26,232 nucleotides of DNA. Origin: a virus. Made by a program: the position numbers and the translations under genes. The DNA lies in IMG/VR virus record IMGVR_UViG_3300042556_000736, positions 1-26,232 of that record. One strand, written 5' to 3'. Below, one piece after another: positions 19,101-26,232 of this stretch; position 1 is the stretch's first letter, and each line of letters opens with the position of its first letter. A model generated the notes under the pieces. That model saw nothing but the letters and a program-made list of their open reading frames with translations, was not told the DNA's origin and did no database searches.

Positions 19101-21299
19101 TTATTTCCTCAAATTGTTTCGGTTTTCCGGCGCTAACACGTTGACCACAGCCCCGCGCCCTTCTTTTGGAATTACCGCCCATTCCTGCGGGTTATTAAAA
19201 ACGCGCAGTACAGTAGTGCGCTCGGCAGCAGGTAATGTATCAATTAACTGCGCCATATTCTTGCCGGATTTAGACGCCTCGGTCAACCTATCCATTACTT
19301 TTTTACCTAACCGGCGCGACAGCTCGTCAAGCGTGGTATTGCCCGCCGTAGTGGCGCGGTTAAATGCAAAGTCAGGAAAACGAAAGCGCGATTTATTTGC
19401 ATCTAACAGTTCGACTAATGCATCATGCCCCATCTCGACTTGCTTCAATATGCGCTTATCTCGTTTAACTTCGTCAGCAAGTTTGGTAAGCTTTGACATT
19501 GCAGCTTCGCTCATTTCTTTAGCGACGTCGTAGCTGCCGGAGCCAAATATTTTTTCAACCGCTTTAGTGTTGTTCCCCTCCACTAATTTGACAAAAGTCG
19601 ACGGGTCGGTTTGGTACAGTTGCAATGCTTCAGCCGACAGCTTTTTTTCACTGACCGCTTTTAAGCCTGCCGAATACGCATCCAAATAGGCGCCGTAACC
19701 GGTGCCGCCCGCATCTTCAATTGCTTTCCTAATCATCGGCCCAACACTAGCGGTAACTTTAGCTGCGAGTTCTTTTTGTGCTGTTGGATCGTTAGGAGCT
19801 AATTTACGCGCGTTAGCACCTAAATTTTTACGAAGCGTCTCATACGCATACGCGTCAATAACGCCGCCTGCGTTTGTCCACTTAAGAATATCGTTTTTCG
19901 CCATTGTCAGCAAACGCGTCAAATCCCTCGCACCAGGAGCCAACGTAACGTCAGTCAACAGCTTATCAATGTTTTGAATTACTTTGTCAGTCTTGAGTGG
20001 CTTGTACCCATGCGCTGCCAAGCTGTCCGCTGCGGCGGTCGCAAAGCGTGAAGCCTCACCAAATATCAGCGAGCCTTCGGCGGCTTGTGCTGCTACTTCA
20101 TCGGCGCGTTTAGCCAACTCACCCTCGTAAGTAAAACGACCTGTACTAACCGGACGGCCAAGTTCGATAGATTTTTGCTGGCCTTTTTCCAGCAAGCGCG
20201 TGCCTGCAGGCACTGCCGCCTCTGCTGCGGGCACTAAACCTGTTACAGGCTCTTGTTTTATTACGCCCGGCGGTACGGCTGAAAAGCGGCGTACTTGATC
20301 CGCTTTTTCGGCGGCCACAGCGCCCATGCGCTCGGCTTGCGCTCTTAGCTGGGGCTCTAACGTGCCCGCCAAATTAGCGTTATACATAGCTTGTTCTAGC
20401 TCAGGCAACAACTGCTTACGCAGCGCGTTCTTAGCTTCCCCTCTTGCGGTTCTAGCGCTTGCTTGCGTTGCGCCGCCAGCCTCTTCAGCAAGCTGGTTAA
20501 TGCGCGCGGCTTGCTCTAATTCTTCATTTATTAACTGAAAACGTGGGTCGCGTTTGGCATATTTAGCTAAAAGCGCTTGCGTAGTTGGTGATGCAAGACT
20601 TGCGATTGACTGCGCGGCAGTTAACTCACTTCCACCCTCACGCGCCAAAGCGCGGGCGGCGGCCACATCTACGCCCAACGAGTCACGCAGAATCTTGGCA
20701 GCCTTTTGCGAACCAAGCTGACCGGTCAAAGTGTCAAACAGCCAGCCCAAACCGCGCCCACCCAGCTGCAACGCTTTGTCAACATAAGGCGCTGCAACCT
20801 GACCGCCAGCTTCATAAATAGCGCCCATTAGCAGGTCGCGGGTACCTGCCTCAATACCTTGCATTGGGGTCATCTCAGGCTGGTTGCCCAACGCAATGTC
20901 AGCTTGACGCAACAAACCTGACGCTAGCCCGTAGCCGCCAGCCGAACCCATAACAACGCCGGCGGGGCCAGCTGGTGCCCCAAAAAAACCACCCGCTATT
21001 GCACTGCCCGCCTCCAATGTCGGGCCAAGAAATTGCCGTGTAGTTTGCGCAGCACTATATAGGCCGGGGTAATCTTTGGCAAACGGAGGTGGTTGCACGC
21101 GGGGGCCAGGCACTTCGCTAACCGCCGGAGCTAATTCGGGTGCGGCTGGCGGCGGTTCGTCAAGCATCCATTTGCCGCCGATACGATAGGCTTTTTTGCC
21201 TTCTGCGTTCGTAGCCGTATCTTCAATAGGCAGCCACTTACCATCAACTAACGCAGCTCGTTCGCCAGTTTTAGGGTTAGTCGCAGTTTCAATAGCCAT
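19101..21299 (-). CDS. Large internal virion or DNA-ejection protein, candidate
   Basis: A 732-residue protein, Ala-rich and mostly helical. The N-terminus has short repeats about the product of Trp-containing strands (GKWLPIEDT, GGKWMLDEP) and a Pro-rich linker. Hydrophobic Gly/Ala segments follow (about residues 98-130: AGSAIAGGFFGAPAGPAGVVMG), able to insert in a membrane, then long helices. Size, composition and position as the third gene of the block resemble T7 gp16 or P22 gp16-type ejection proteins. No lytic transglycosylase motif was seen. Function is by analogy. Confidence 0.65.
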   Translation of the reverse strand: MAIETATNPKTGERAALVDGKWLPIEDTATNAEGKKAYRIGGKWMLDEPPPAAPELAPAVSEVPGPRVQPPPFAKDYPGLYSAAQTTRQFLGPTLEAGSAIAGGFFGAPAGPAGVVMGSAGGYGLASGLLRQADIALGNQPEMTPMQGIEAGTRDLLMGAIYEAGGQVAAPYVDKALQLGGRGLGWLFDTLTGQLGSQKAAKILRDSLGVDVAAARALAREGGSELTAAQSIASLASPTTQALLAKYAKRDPRFQLINEELEQAARINQLAEEAGGATQASARTARGEAKNALRKQLLPELEQAMYNANLAGTLEPQLRAQAERMGAVAAEKADQVRRFSAVPPGVIKQEPVTGLVPAAEAAVPAGTRLLEKGQQKSIELGRPVSTGRFTYEGELAKRADEVAAQAAEGSLIFGEASRFATAAADSLAAHGYKPLKTDKVIQNIDKLLTDVTLAPGARDLTRLLTMAKNDILKWTNAGGVIDAYAYETLRKNLGANARKLAPNDPTAQKELAAKVTASVGPMIRKAIEDAGGTGYGAYLDAYSAGLKAVSEKKLSAEALQLYQTDPSTFVKLVEGNNTKAVEKIFGSGSYDVAKEMSEAAMSKLTKLADEVKRDKRILKQVEMGHDALVELLDANKSRFRFPDFAFNRATTAGNTTLDELSRRLGKKVMDRLTEASKSGKNMAQLIDTLPAAERTTVLRVFNNPQEWAVIPKEGRGAVVNVLAPENRNNLRK

Positions 21300-21301
21300 T
21301 A

Positions 21302-23377
21302 TTATTTATCCCGTACATAACCTGTTGGGGGTTCAACTCTACCTCCACCACTTGCGTCAAGTTCCGAGCCTTTCAAAATAAACTGACCTTTATGTTGTTT
21401 CATAAACCTCAAAACAATTTCGCCAGCGGCTTTACGTTTTTCTGCGGGCAATAGTGGGTTTGCTAAATCACCTGCAGCACGCTCATAAAACTTACGATCG
21501 GCTTCAGATTGCGGGCCTTCAAAACGCGGTACGGTCATGGTAATCATGGCCGCGATAGGCTCCAACCTACTTGAAGCAATAGAGCCTGCAGTAGCATAAC
21601 CAAAAAATTCTGTGGCAAAATCAACCGCCCTACCTGCGCCGCTGCCGGTGGATTGGTCAAGCAGCCCGTCTTTTTTAATCATCTCCTCTACATCAGGAAT
21701 CAAAGACTCAATAGTGCGCAAAGCTTCTGCCCTTGCCTGTTCGGCTTTAATTACGTTCGGGCTACGCTTACCAACGTTAGGTATTCTGCGTATTTCTTGA
21801 CCTCTTCCATTAAAAAGCGTCACGTTGCCGTTATCGTCAACTTGCGTCGTGGCAACTTGATTTACTTTGTCCGCTTGCAGGTAGTATTGATTTCTTGCTA
21901 TACCTTCCATAACTTTAGCGTGGCGCTGCCGTTCTTTTGCTTCGTCTTGTTGACGATTTTCGCTGCGCCGTGCAATGTCTTCCATTGCACGTCTGTGCTC
22001 AATATCAGCTAACAGTCGATCGCTATCCAATTTTCTCTTGGCAACATTCGCAGGGCTGTTTTCGTTTTGCAACATTTTTGCAAGCTCAAGTCTGCCTTCT
22101 TTACCTTGTGCTATAAGCAGACTTGCCACTCGACGATCTACGCCGGGAAAGCCGTATGTAGCTCCTACACTTGGCAGTGCAGCGTCCGTTGTAGTTTCAG
22201 GCGCAGCAACCGCAGCTTCAGGCGCAGCGGCAGGCGCAGCGGCAGGCGCAGCGGCAGGCGCAGCTTCAGGTGCAGCAACCGCAGGTGCAGCAACCGCAGG
22301 TGCTTCAGCAGCGGGTGCAGCAACCGCAGGTGCTTCAGCGGGTGATCTCAATTTAGCCAAGTAATCAGCGCGGAACTCCGATCTTGTCATTGGATACTTA
22401 TTGTTTGCTGCTGATTCAAAGACGTGTTCTTGAAACGCCTCTTCCATCTGTTGCTCAGTACGCTCTTGTGATTTTTGGCGGGCTTCTAATATGTCTTTGC
22501 CCGACATGTTCATCATCGTAGCGATGTAGTTTTCCGCGTTTTGGTTATAGTTCTCAATATGTTGCTTTATGGCCTCTTCTTCAGGCATAAATGCTGCCGC
22601 TTCTTTTCCTAATACGGGATGCTTATATAGCGCCCTTATCCGCTGCGTGATTTGCGCGGCGCCTACTTTTTTATCCGTAGTTGAAATTAAAGCTGGGTTG
22701 TACACTGCATTAAATCTAGCTAAATATCTATCTAAATTTTCAGACTCAAATTTAGCCCTGTCTTGCGCTTGTTTTTCGCCGGCGCGTTGCTCTTCAAAAA
22801 CTTTTTCTGCAGGCAACAGGCCGGTCAGAACGTTAGCTCTAAACTGATTCATGTCAGGCTGCCCTGAAGCATACAGCGGCGCTAACATATCGTCTGCTTC
22901 TTCACGGCTGATATCGCCATTTCGTACAAACCGTTCAGCTAAACTAGCTGCTTGGCCAAAATCTTGTGCGTTAGCAATATAGCGAAATGCGTTCCCGCGC
23001 CTAGCTTCTTTAGTTTTTCTTTCAGCTTCTTCCTTCTCTTGTTCGCGTTTTTGTTGGGTTAAAAGCGCTGTCTGCCGTTCCGATTCTGATTTTCGGCGCT
23101 TTTCTACGGCACTAGCAATCGGCTCAACATAACTAGGCGCTTCAACAGAAAGCCTATTAAAAAATTCATCTGATCCATAAGGTATGCCGCTGCCTATCAA
23201 CTTAGCCAGCGCATTTTTTTCCTGCTGCTGTTGTTGATACTCTTGCGCTTTCAACGCATTCATTTGCGAAGACTCTTGCAAACCGCGCAACTGCAACGCT
23301 TGCGTCATAGCGTTTATGGGCGATTCAAGTTGAATCGGTTTAATTTGCCCTAAGATGTTGTAGTCAATACCGGCCAT
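21302..23377 (-). CDS. Internal virion or DNA-ejection protein with Ala/Pro linker
   Basis: A 691-residue, highly charged helical protein. The N-terminus MAGIDYNILGQIKPIQLESPINAMTQALQLRG is typical of podovirus ejection-type proteins. Coiled-coil stretches rich in Gln, Lys and Glu follow (about residues 40-125). An Ala/Pro low-complexity linker occupies about residues 345-393, and the C-terminal part is helical. GGAGGGGG stands before the ATG. It is flanked by the other two presumed ejection proteins. Position and architecture match T7 gp15/P22 gp20-like components, without a diagnostic motif. Confidence 0.68.
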   Translation of the reverse strand: MAGIDYNILGQIKPIQLESPINAMTQALQLRGLQESSQMNALKAQEYQQQQQEKNALAKLIGSGIPYGSDEFFNRLSVEAPSYVEPIASAVEKRRKSESERQTALLTQQKREQEKEEAERKTKEARRGNAFRYIANAQDFGQAASLAERFVRNGDISREEADDMLAPLYASGQPDMNQFRANVLTGLLPAEKVFEEQRAGEKQAQDRAKFESENLDRYLARFNAVYNPALISTTDKKVGAAQITQRIRALYKHPVLGKEAAAFMPEEEAIKQHIENYNQNAENYIATMMNMSGKDILEARQKSQERTEQQMEEAFQEHVFESAANNKYPMTRSEFRADYLAKLRSPAEAPAVAAPAAEAPAVAAPAVAAPEAAPAAAPAAAPAAAPEAAVAAPETTTDAALPSVGATYGFPGVDRRVASLLIAQGKEGRLELAKMLQNENSPANVAKRKLDSDRLLADIEHRRAMEDIARRSENRQQDEAKERQRHAKVMEGIARNQYYLQADKVNQVATTQVDDNGNVTLFNGRGQEIRRIPNVGKRSPNVIKAEQARAEALRTIESLIPDVEEMIKKDGLLDQSTGSGAGRAVDFATEFFGYATAGSIASSRLEPIAAMITMTVPRFEGPQSEADRKFYERAAGDLANPLLPAEKRKAAGEIVLRFMKQHKGQFILKGSELDASGGGRVEPPTGYVRDK
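22200..22340 (-). repeat. Tandem 12-15 bp repeats encoding an Ala/Pro linker
   Basis: Four copies or near-copies of the 12-mer GCAGCGGCAGGC are followed by 15-bp variants (GCAACCGCAGGTGCA and relatives). Together they encode PAAA-, PAVAA- and PEAA-type repeats within the ejection-protein gene. All steps are multiples of three, so copy-number changes would keep the frame. The protein segment is probably a flexible hinge. Confidence 0.8.
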
Positions 23378-23380
23378 AAT

Positions 23381-24100
23381 TTAACCCCCTCCCATGCCCG
23401 GAATACCTTCAAAATTACTCACATCATTTTGAAACATAAACGTATTTGTATAAGGCGTTTGAGCAGCGGGTGTTTTTAGGGGGAGTACGCGATCCATCCA
23501 GTCTTGAGTCTGTTGCCGGTTTAAGTACCCACTCAGACCACCCGTTAATGCGTTGGCTACGTTTGCATACCCAGACGCGCGCATATTACCTCGCATGTAA
23601 GCATTTTCAGCCATGTTCTGACCATACTGACCTGCTTGTTGCGCCATAGTTGCCGCATTAGATTGCCCCATGCCCGCTAAACTTTGCAGCGGGTTTAAAC
23701 GAGCCGCGCGTTCGGCTTGATAGCGGTTGAACGCATTACCAAACTCTTGCGACCCTAACTCTTGGCCGTAGCGCGTTAACCCGCGCATGGCATTACCTGA
23801 TAGCAAACCGCCGCGTGCAGCCGCGCTATTCTCTAGCGCGCGCAACCCTTCTTTAAGCCGAAAACCATAGCCGGGATCTGCTTGGAATTGTTCCATGCCA
23901 AACGGGGTGTAGCGAGAGGCTTCAATCAACTCAGGCAGCGCATTGACACCTGCTTGGCGAAAAGGCTCTTGCAGTTCAATCTGACGATTAAACGCGCGCT
24001 CTTGCGCGGCAGTCGCGCGGTCGGCGGCTTTAGCTTGTTCTCTAGCGCCGGCGTAAGACGCGCCGCCACTAATTACGCTACCTGCTATAAATCCTGACAT
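23381..24100 (-). CDS. DNA transfer protein, P22 gp7-like ejection component
   Basis: A 239-residue protein with a Gly/Ala-rich, membrane-like N-terminus (SGFIAGSVISGGASYAGA) and a helix with Gln-rich repeats. The characteristic block FQADPGYGFRLKEGLRALENSAAARGGLLSG lies at about residues 73-103 and recurs in podovirus DNA-transfer proteins. Many Asn, Gln and Gly residues follow (MGQSNAATMAQQAGQYGQNMA). It probably leaves the virion with the DNA and helps form the channel through the envelope. GGAG precedes the ATG; the start overlaps the SET gene end by 16 bp. Confidence 0.78.
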   Translation of the reverse strand: MSGFIAGSVISGGASYAGAREQAKAADRATAAQERAFNRQIELQEPFRQAGVNALPELIEASRYTPFGMEQFQADPGYGFRLKEGLRALENSAAARGGLLSGNAMRGLTRYGQELGSQEFGNAFNRYQAERAARLNPLQSLAGMGQSNAATMAQQAGQYGQNMAENAYMRGNMRASGYANVANALTGGLSGYLNRQQTQDWMDRVLPLKTPAAQTPYTNTFMFQNDVSNFEGIPGMGGG

Positions 24101-24966
24101 AGTGTTTCTCCAGATAAGTAAAAGCCAAAATTTGTGCCTACAGCGTCGCGGTAGTTAATTAAAAGTTCACTGCCAACGCCCACATCTTTTAAGGCAATTA
24201 CATATAAATCATCACCAAACTTGTACGGCATTACATTTGCATCGTGCGAGTGGTTGATGTAGCGCCCAGCTGGGGTGCGCTTGCCATCCAATCGACCAGG
24301 GCAAATAACTTCACCTGCAAAAAAGTATCGTGTAGCAAACATGCCAATACCATGCACTGGCGACGCTTTTAACTCTACATCGTGCCCTTCTGGCATATCA
24401 ACTAGATCACTTTCAATGGTCACTATGGCGTCCATTGTGGGTTGATCCACCCCTAACTGCGCTAAAAACAACTGATAGTCTGCGCGCGCCGATTCAATTG
24501 CTAATTGGCGTCGAGTATCGCCTAGCCCACATTCCGGCACTACGTACAGCCTGTCTTCTAACGTCGGTATATCTTGGCAATCGTCTGGGTTAGGGTAAAT
24601 GTCCACCCATACCACTTCATCCTCAAACACTCGCCCTGCGCGCTGCTCACCTGCTTTTGCATCAAACTCACACGGCGCGGTTAGCACAACAACTTCCGTG
24701 TCACGGTTTACGGCAATTGTGCCCTTTTCTAACCGCACGCGGTAGTCCGTTTTGTGCGCTGCGCCTGTCAATATTGTCCACGGCGGTATCGTAATCTTTC
24801 GCTCGTACACGCCTGGCAAAAACGTGTGTGTCGTCACAATGTCAGCCTGCGGCATTTGCAGCAATTCATCCTGCAGCGCCACGACTTTCTGCCGCATTAA
24901 CTCCGGCGTAACGACCGCCGTACTGTCAGGGTTAAATATCTCAACCGCGTTCACACCACCACCCAT
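24085..24966 (-). CDS. Cupin-like domain fused to SET-domain protein lysine methyltransferase
   Basis: A 293-residue, two-domain protein. Residues about 43-135 (TFLPGVYERKITIPPWTILTGAAHKT ... FEDEVVWVDIYPNPDD) match a small cupin-like beta-barrel module frequent in phage tail regions. Residues about 196-275 form a SET domain: G206-I-G-M-F-A at the start, YINHSHDAN at 236-244 with N238, H239 and S240, VIALKDVGVGSELLINY with E267 and catalytic-type Y272. SET proteins transfer methyl groups from S-adenosylmethionine to lysine. The core motifs look intact. The gene sits between the fibre and ejection genes and overlaps both by 16 bp, so it is expressed late. Confidence 0.85.
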   Translation of the reverse strand: MGGGVNAVEIFNPDSTAVVTPELMRQKVVALQDELLQMPQADIVTTHTFLPGVYERKITIPPWTILTGAAHKTDYRVRLEKGTIAVNRDTEVVVLTAPCEFDAKAGEQRAGRVFEDEVVWVDIYPNPDDCQDIPTLEDRLYVVPECGLGDTRRQLAIESARADYQLFLAQLGVDQPTMDAIVTIESDLVDMPEGHDVELKASPVHGIGMFATRYFFAGEVICPGRLDGKRTPAGRYINHSHDANVMPYKFGDDLYVIALKDVGVGSELLINYRDAVGTNFGFYLSGETLCQDL

Positions 24967-26232
24967 CGTGAGCCGCTAGACACCGTCACCGTGGTGCCAC
25001 TGGCTACCGTTACCGGGCCAGCTGACATGCCTGACGTGCCTGCAGCAATTGTGTAGCTGGTATCAATAGTTAAACTATTGACAAATATACCATTGCCCGC
25101 TACGAAATGCTCCGATGTTAATTCACCTGTGCTGGGTTTGTACAGATATTTGGCGTTGCTGGTATAGATGGTCGACAGCGAACCGGACGTGGCAGCCGCA
25201 AACGTCGGGAAGACGTTCGTTGACGTACTGGTGTCGTTCGTAATCGTTGCGCCCGAGCCGCTGGCTACCGCCCAAGTTGCTGTTGTGCCGTTCGATGTCA
25301 GCACGTAATTATTGGCACCAATCGGCAGGCGAGTCGAGCTGTTGGCGCCATTGCCAATAATCAAGTCGCCCGTGCTAGTGACCGGTGACAAAGCATTGAA
25401 GGCTGCACTGGCAGTCGTCTGGCCTGTGCCGCCGTTGGCAATCGGCAGTGTGCCAGTTACTTGGCTGGTCAGATCCACGCCGGTCAGGGTGCCACCTAGT
25501 GTCAGGCTGCCGCTGGATGTGACCGTGCCAGACAGGCTAATGCCGTTGACCGTACCGGTGCCAGAGACGCTAGTAACCGTGCCCACGTACTGGTCGTTCG
25601 ACGTGATGGTGAAGTTGGGGTACGTGCCCGAGATGCTGGTCGTGCCCGCCCCGGTCAACGACACCACTTGGTCAGGTAGGGTGTTGGTAATCGTAAAGTT
25701 AGGGTACGTGCCCGACGTGCTGATGCCTGTGCCGCCCGTCAACACCACCGTCTGGTCTGGCGCGGTGTTGGTAATCGTAAAGTTAGGGTAGGTGCCCGAC
25801 GTGCTGATGCCTGTGCCGCCCGTCAACACCACCGTCTGGTCTGGCGCGGTGTTGGTGATAGTTACCGCGCCCGTGCCAGACGACACCGAGATGCCGGTGC
25901 CTGCTACGGCGCTGGTCACACCCGTGTTGGCAATCGTAATAGACCCGGCACCATTAGTGACACTGATGGCCGTGCCAGCCGTCAGGTTGGCGTTCTCCCA
26001 CACACCTGCCACGGCGTCGTAAATCAGCGTGTTGCCGGAGGCCAACGACGTAAAGTTGACGTTGCCGTCGGTTCCGCCCAGCACCGAACCGTAAGTCGGG
26101 CGTACAAACAAAATGCCGTTAGACACACCTACGTTAATTACCGCAGCTACCGAACAGATGGCGGCAGGGGCGGTGGGTTTTGTCTTGGTTAACCCGCCGG
26201 TTACTAGTGGGTTGTAATAAAGAACATCACCC
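24951..26232 (-). CDS. Tail fibre, partial (N-terminus beyond window)
   Basis: The frame stays open through the right edge. A GTG at 26126 is not the true start, because reading upstream continues with GDVLYYNPLVTGGLTKTK, a usual fibre motif. The visible 427 residues carry repeats of TGGTGISTSGTYPNFTITNT, then GTVTSVSGTGTVNGISLSGTVTSSGSLTLGG, then LPIANGGTGQTTASAAFNAL, then GDLIIGNGANSSTRLPIGANNYVLTSNG. These are classical long-fibre motifs. The C-terminus ends SGSRWVVV, as in the fibre of 18210-19100. It overlaps the SET gene by 16 bp. Confidence 0.87.
   Translation of the reverse strand, partial: GDVLYYNPLVTGGLTKTKPTAPAAICSVAAVINVGVSNGILFVRPTYGSVLGGTDGNVNFTSLASGNTLIYDAVAGVWENANLTAGTAISVTNGAGSITIANTGVTSAVAGTGISVSSGTGAVTITNTAPDQTVVLTGGTGISTSGTYPNFTITNTAPDQTVVLTGGTGISTSGTYPNFTITNTLPDQVVSLTGAGTTSISGTYPNFTITSNDQYVGTVTSVSGTGTVNGISLSGTVTSSGSLTLGGTLTGVDLTSQVTGTLPIANGGTGQTTASAAFNALSPVTSTGDLIIGNGANSSTRLPIGANNYVLTSNGTTATWAVASGSGATITNDTSTSTNVFPTFAAATSGSLSTIYTSNAKYLYKPSTGELTSEHFVAGNGIFVNSLTIDTSYTIAAGTSGMSAGPVTVASGTTVTVSSGSRWVVV
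25681..25848 (-). repeat. Two 84-bp tandem direct repeats within the tail fibre gene
   Basis: Units 25681-25764 and 25765-25848 differ by one base (C at 25707, G at 25791). Each encodes 28 residues of the TGGTGISTSGTYPNF type. A diverged copy lies at about 25597-25680. Near identity indicates recent duplication or ongoing recombination that alters fibre length in frame. Confidence 0.9.

What the first reader, a model, noticed from the sequence alone, without database searches (positions are those of the whole stretch)
24085..24966. SET-domain methyltransferase fused to a cupin-like module within the virion genes
SET domains are best known as histone and protein lysine methyltransferases. Here the motifs GIGMFA, NHS and ELLINY with Y272 look intact, and the gene overlaps both a tail fibre gene and an ejection-protein gene. 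Late expression and location suggest it methylates a virion protein (fibre or ejection protein) or is carried into the host to modify host proteins. The N-terminal fusion to the cupin-like barrel usual in tail regions may anchor it in the particle.
Basis: partly seen in the sequence, partly recalled or inferred. Interest (0 to 1): 0.65.

Follow-up and report, generated by a model that had tools for sequence, protein, structure and literature searches.

The report
Phage tail-module cupin fused to SET methyltransferase
A short-tailed bacterial virus, like hundreds of relatives, carries in its tail and DNA-ejection gene block a protein that joins a cupin barrel to a miniature SET domain (the enzyme fold that methylates histones), with the catalytic residues unchanged throughout the family; what it methylates, and whether it rides in the virus particle, is unknown.

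Summary
ORF 24085-24966(-), 293 aa, is a cupin barrel (model residues 41-144), a helical linker and a SET domain (191-273). The AlphaFold2 model has pLDDT 90.7; its SET part matches MLL1 at 1.6 A over 78 residues. Across 71 relatives (mostly 25-66% identical) the SET signature (S202, G208, RT--GR--NH, E267, Y272) is invariant; dN/dS is about 0.08. The gene overlaps a fibre-like gene and a P22-gp7-like ejection gene by 16 bp each; the ejection gene follows in 226 of 256 testable relatives.

(1) It is a mini-SET: motif I to NHS spans exactly 38 residues in all 71, against 68-79 in host bacterial SETs, so the SET-I insert is missing. (2) SET is an exchangeable cassette on a phage cupin, gained or lost about 16 times, once a separate overlapping gene, elsewhere free-standing. 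(3) No lysine in the three downstream ejection proteins tracks SET presence.

An active protein methyltransferase carried by a tail/ejection-module protein is most likely. Virion presence, activity and substrate are untested. I found no paper describing the arrangement; PHROG 34170 lists it as unknown.

The parts
24085..24966 (-). cupin-SET gene, 293 aa
   Evidence: ORF; Pfam SET E 1.3e-8; PHROG 34170 over residues 23-277 E 1.5e-35
24535..24846 (-). cupin barrel, residues 41-144
   Evidence: AF2 model; Z up to 11.7 to cupins; PHROG 12032 'short tail fiber' E 6e-22. No HxH metal motif in the family columns
24421..24525 (-). helical linker, residues 148-182; stays with SET when SET is a separate gene
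   Evidence: DSSP of model; unfused SET proteins L265-L267 begin with the same DY..FL..G helix
24148..24396 (-). mini-SET domain, residues 191-273, without SET-I insert
   Evidence: MLL1 7u5v Z 10.7, rmsd 1.6 A, 78 residues, 30% identity; S202-H239 spacing 38 in 71/71
24337..24351 (-). SET motif I GIGMF, residues 206-210
   Evidence: G206 70/71, G208 71/71, F210 64/71
24247..24255 (-). NHS, residues 238-240, cofactor-binding motif
   Evidence: N238 and H239 invariant in 71/71
24151..24168 (-). ELLINY, residues 267-272, with catalytic tyrosine Y272
   Evidence: E267 and Y272 invariant in 71/71
24106..24111 (-). GGAGAA Shine-Dalgarno-like site of the ejection gene, inside the end of the SET reading frame
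   Evidence: sequence; explains the recurrent C-terminal '..GE' in SET+ and SET- relatives
23381..24100 (-). P22 gp7-like DNA ejection protein, immediately downstream
   Evidence: PHROG 598 E 2.7e-40; follows in 194/222 SET+ and 32/34 SET- loci
24951..26231 (-). fibre-like gene immediately upstream, incomplete at the contig end
   Evidence: phrog_31660 tail fiber E 5e-4
21302..23377 (-). probable second ejection-module protein, 691 aa (position only)
   Evidence: phrog_33352 unknown function E 9e-17
19101..21299 (-). probable third ejection-module protein, 732 aa (position only)
   Evidence: no family hit

Best explanation
The protein is an S-adenosylmethionine-dependent protein methyltransferase built onto a cupin subunit of the short-tail/DNA-ejection module. 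The cupin is the near-constant part and probably docks the protein to the tail base or ejection complex (inferred from synteny). The SET is optional cargo that methylates a protein, most likely on lysine. Shown by computation: both folds, invariance of the catalytic core, purifying selection, synteny, repeated cassette gain and loss, and absence of the SET-I insert. Inferred: catalysis, presence in the virion, target. For the target I favour a host protein met at or soon after DNA entry (about 0.45) over virion proteins during assembly (about 0.3); the rest is open.
For: SET residues S202, G208, R230, T231, G234, R235, N238, H239, E267 and Y272 are invariant in 71 sequences down to about 25% identity to the window. 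dN/dS of the SET part is 0.08, close to the cupin's 0.06. Confident model with the SET fold. Cupin and SET distances correlate at r 0.85, Mantel 0/500, so the fusion is old. The cupin family sits beside ejection or internal-virion genes in P22-like and T7-like phages. Unfused SET genes recur beside virion genes: just before an ejection-like gene block in L266 and beside baseplate wedge gene gp25 in cyanophage P-RSM6. Accessory distribution, no lysine in the ejection-module proteins tracking SET, and free-standing relatives far from tail genes (P-SSM7 next to nrdAB; L267) favour a target outside the ejection proteins.
Against: No biochemical data. SET-I, which in known SETs forms part of the peptide groove and carries an aromatic residue of the lysine channel, is absent; activity could need a partner, or the chemistry may differ. 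No proteomics or solved structure places this cupin in a virion; no PDB sequence relative was found. In BPP-1, Foturvirus and L265 the cupin lies nearer the terminase, portal or RNA-polymerase genes, so 'tail' is not its only context.
Confidence: 0.55

Rival explanations
1. It methylates virion proteins (fibre, portal, coat or ejection proteins) during assembly and does nothing in the new host.
For: Gene overlaps fibre-like and ejection genes; the ejection gene's Shine-Dalgarno-like site lies inside the SET reading frame, suggesting coupled translation; standalone SET beside a baseplate gene in P-RSM6.
Against: No conserved lysine in the three downstream ejection-module proteins of SET+ relatives and no column tracking SET (fibre, coat and portal not tested); close relatives lack SET while keeping the same module.
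Confidence: 0.25
2. The mini-SET is no longer an enzyme; it is a structural or binding domain of the tail protein.
For: SET-I and the aromatic residues it normally supplies are missing; fused to a cupin without a recognisable metal site; dispensable in many relatives.
Against: The residues retained without exception are those of cofactor binding and catalysis (NH, E267, Y272), not just core positions; free-standing copies exist in unrelated phages.
Confidence: 0.15
3. The enzyme is never packaged: it acts in the infected cell during late infection, on host or phage non-structural proteins, and sits in this operon only for expression timing.
For: Several SET-bearing or cupin genes lie near replication or terminase genes; no evidence of packaging.
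Against: The fusion partner is a protein family that in most P22-like relatives is followed at once by the ejection gene, including 32/34 SET- loci.
Confidence: 0.25

Closest known systems
PHROG 34170 (unknown function), including Rhodoferax phage P26218 gp30 and Pseudoalteromonas phage PH1 gp49
   Same: Same cupin-SET architecture over nearly the full length, same position before the gp7-like ejection gene
   Different: Only about 27-32% identical; annotated hypothetical, no function proposed
PHROG 12032 / 24280 'short tail fiber protein' / 'tail fiber adhesin' (BPP-1 Bbp23, Thalassomonas phage BA3)
   Same: Cupin domain and, in P22-like phages, the same gene position
   Different: No SET domain; the annotation as a fibre is not backed by any experiment I found
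KMT2A/MLL1 and other SET lysine methyltransferases
   Same: SET fold, motif I, NHS and catalytic tyrosine
   Different: Phage domain lacks SET-I (about 35 residues shorter between motif I and NHS) and has an invariant RT--GR segment instead
PBCV-1 vSET (A612L)
   Same: Small viral SET protein
   Different: Eukaryotic virus, free-standing, longer SET-I, histone H3K27 target; no cupin
PHROG 28741 cyanophage/SAR11-phage mini-SET (P-SSM7, P-RSM6, Kolga)
   Same: Short SET with an RTP-G----NHS signature, about 100 aa in P-SSM7
   Different: Free-standing, no cupin, distantly related
T4 Alt (ADP-ribosyltransferase injected with the DNA; from own knowledge)
   Same: Works-like analogy: a host-modifying enzyme delivered by the particle
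   Different: Different chemistry and family; delivery is demonstrated for Alt and only hypothesised here

Membership tests
SET domain (PF00856) | Profile match above curated cut-off | tested here: met
   35.7 versus 22.4 bits; 69/71 relatives match at E 0.01
SET domain (PF00856) | Motif I GxG, NHS motif, catalytic tyrosine in ExxxxY | tested here: met
   G206 70/71; G208, N238, H239, E267, Y272 71/71
SET domain (PF00856) | SET fold | tested here: met
   AF2 model against MLL1: Z 10.7, 1.6 A over 78 residues
SET domain (PF00856) | SET-I insert of typical length | tested here: not met
   38 residues S202-H239 in 71/71 versus 68-79 in bacterial SETs of host genomes. SET-I is variable and not part of the family definition, so this marks a variant, not exclusion
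SET protein-lysine methyltransferase (activity) | S-adenosylmethionine-dependent methyl transfer to lysine | not testable with these tools
   needs an assay
Cupin superfamily | double-stranded beta-helix barrel | tested here: met
   4e2g_A Z 11.7, rmsd 3.0 A, 94 residues; 5j4g_A Z 11.4, rmsd 2.2 A, 86 residues
Cupin superfamily | metal-binding HxH(x3-4)E motif | tested here: not met
   columns 69-75 vary and no HxH is conserved; many cupins lack metal, so the fold is claimed and metal chemistry is not
PHROG 34170 | full-length match | tested here: met
   E 1.5e-35, residues 23-277 to 15-280 of 296
Virion/tail structural protein | presence in purified particles | not testable with these tools
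   no proteome found in the papers read; no PDB sequence relative

The most novel reading that the evidence does not exclude
A large, widely distributed group of podophages packages a minimal SET methyltransferase on the cupin of its ejection module and delivers it with the DNA, so that host proteins are methylated at the moment of infection; this SET works without the SET-I insert, making it among the smallest SET enzymes.
Probability: 0.28. Interest if true: 0.85.

Novelty: new variant of a known kind. Interest (0 to 1): 0.6.

Why it matters
Protein methylation by SET enzymes is studied almost entirely in eukaryotes. A widespread phage family with an invariant catalytic core, tied to the ejection module and present in two cultured phages (P26218, PH1), gives a testable case of phage-made protein methylation. 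The absent SET-I tests how little of the SET fold is needed for catalysis. Natural SET+ and SET- pairs of closely related phages are ready-made comparisons.

Tried and rejected
Lysines in the gp7-like, 691-aa and 732-aa downstream proteins as dedicated substrates: no column has lysine in at least 95% of SET+ relatives and none is associated with SET in a convincing way (best p 0.002, uncorrected over hundreds of columns and opposite in direction). SET moved elsewhere in SET- relatives: no SET found in any frame of those loci, which are partial contigs. The shared C-terminal '..GE(..)LDG' in SET+ and SET- proteins looked like a conserved tail; it is the Shine-Dalgarno-like site and start region of the ejection gene read in the upstream frame. 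Virion structure or proteome for the cupin family: no PDB sequence relative, nothing in the papers read. Literature on phage SET proteins: the ten searches gave one passing mention, Stenotrophomonas phage Ps15 ORF62 (PMC9025141); hits in PMC9022992 and PMC10172136 are immunoglobulin 'I-set'/'C2-set' domains. Promoter and terminator scan of the module: at chance level. Truncated records such as L047, first counted as SET-, were left out of the later tree.

Full report
What is there. The ORF at 24085-24966 on the minus strand (293 aa) is real. Pfam SET matches residues 233-272 with 35.7 bits (cut-off 22.4). PHROG 34170, unknown function, matches residues 23-277 (E 1.5e-35), and the first 125 residues match PHROG 12032 'short tail fiber' and 24280 'tail fiber adhesin'. 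The gene overlaps the upstream fibre-like ORF and the downstream ejection gene by 16 bp each. The ejection gene matches PHROG 598 (E 2.7e-40). The window is a 26-kb virus record with a terminase-like ORF (weak), a family A DNA polymerase, a PHROG DNA-primase match, a helicase and a 3TM holin-type protein.

Structure. An AlphaFold2 model from 71 aligned relatives has mean pLDDT 90.7, with residues 191-270 near 98. Residues 41-144 are a cupin barrel (4e2g Z 11.7; 5j4g Z 11.4 at 2.2 A). Residues 191-273 are a SET domain (MLL1 7u5v: Z 10.7, 1.6 A over 78 residues, 30% identity; EZH2 Z 10.6). pTM is only 0.66, so the arrangement of the two domains is uncertain.

Conservation. In 71 sequences, chosen to be under 80% identical to one another and mostly 25-66% identical to the window, S202, G208, R230, T231, G234, R235, N238, H239, E267 and Y272 never change. 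dN/dS among close relatives is 0.08 for SET and 0.06 for the cupin. This is what an active enzyme family looks like, but it is not an assay.

A mini-SET. The stretch from S202 to H239 is exactly 38 residues in all 71. SET proteins encoded by the bacterial genomes that carry related prophages or phage contigs have 68-79. In MLL1 the gap can be read from the profile alignment as about 35 residues longer. The missing part is SET-I, which in typical SETs builds part of the substrate groove and holds an aromatic residue of the lysine channel (established knowledge). An invariant RT--GR segment stands in its place. Free-standing small proteins of cyanophages P-SSM7 and P-RSM6 and SAR11 phage Kolga are related; the 99-residue P-SSM7 protein shows the short form and the RTP-G----NHS signature, so this looks like a phage type of SET. 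Whether the lysine channel is complete cannot be told from sequence.

Spread and module behaviour. Cultured members are Rhodoferax phage P26218 gp30 and Pseudoalteromonas phage PH1 gp49. Most relatives among deposited phage records carry the cupin alone (46 of 54 records do not cover 80% of the query). Very close relatives differ in having or lacking the SET cassette; the DNA similarity ends just after the cupin and the ejection gene follows in both. On a cupin tree of 192 sequences, SET presence changes at least 16 times (28 expected for shuffled labels). Closely related contigs recombine, so this is a rough count. Yet cupin and SET distances agree over the whole family (r 0.85; Mantel 0/500), so the fusion is old and was then lost or re-acquired often. 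In a Paraburkholderia ferrariae contig (L265) cupin and SET are two genes overlapping by 4 bp; in L266 and L267 SET stands without the cupin.

Position. A gp7-like gene follows at once in 194 of 222 SET+ and 32 of 34 SET- loci. The GGAGAA site before the gp7-like start lies in the SET reading frame. The cupin alone sits before ejection or internal-virion genes in P22-like and T7-like phages, but near terminase, portal or RNA polymerase in BPP-1, Foturvirus and L265. Standalone SET lies beside baseplate wedge gene gp25 in P-RSM6, but beside nrdAB in P-SSM7.

Substrate. In the clade that mixes SET+ and SET- phages, no lysine position in the three downstream ejection-module proteins is kept in SET+ phages or tracks SET. 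This weighs against those proteins as dedicated targets; fibre, coat and portal were not tested, and a non-conserved site would be missed. Optional presence and free-standing relatives fit a host target better, but weakly.

Conclusion. The best reading is a protein methyltransferase carried on a cupin of the tail/ejection module. Shown: folds, invariant core, selection, synteny, cassette behaviour, missing SET-I. Inferred: activity, packaging, target. No paper describing the fusion was found in a library that lacks most subscription journals. The families are catalogued as unknown, so I rate it a new variant of a known kind.

Noticed in passing
L085:9480-10399 (BPP-1 bbp24/bbp23): In BPP-1 a GNAT acetyltransferase gene overlaps the cupin gene directly upstream: a second protein-modifying enzyme type beside this cupin.
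   Followed up: no
L265:7225-8672: Paraburkholderia ferrariae contig: cupin and SET as separate genes with a 4-bp overlap, between a replication-type gene and a possible terminase small-subunit gene.
   Followed up: partly
L083:3809-5237 (MW202557.1): The deposited annotation has a minus-strand gene ('contryphan-vn-tryptophan') reaching into the start of the cupin-SET gene and omits the real gene.
   Followed up: no
L288:2995-3741 (cyanophage P-RSM6): Free-standing mini-SET gene directly upstream of the gp25-like baseplate wedge gene.
   Followed up: no
window 21302-23377: The 691-aa protein holds a long Ala/Pro/Glu-rich low-complexity stretch of repeated 'AAPAAAPA' type.
   Followed up: no
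window 24951-26231: Fibre-like ORF with repeated 'TGGTGISTSGTYPNFTITNT' modules, incomplete at the contig end.
   Followed up: no
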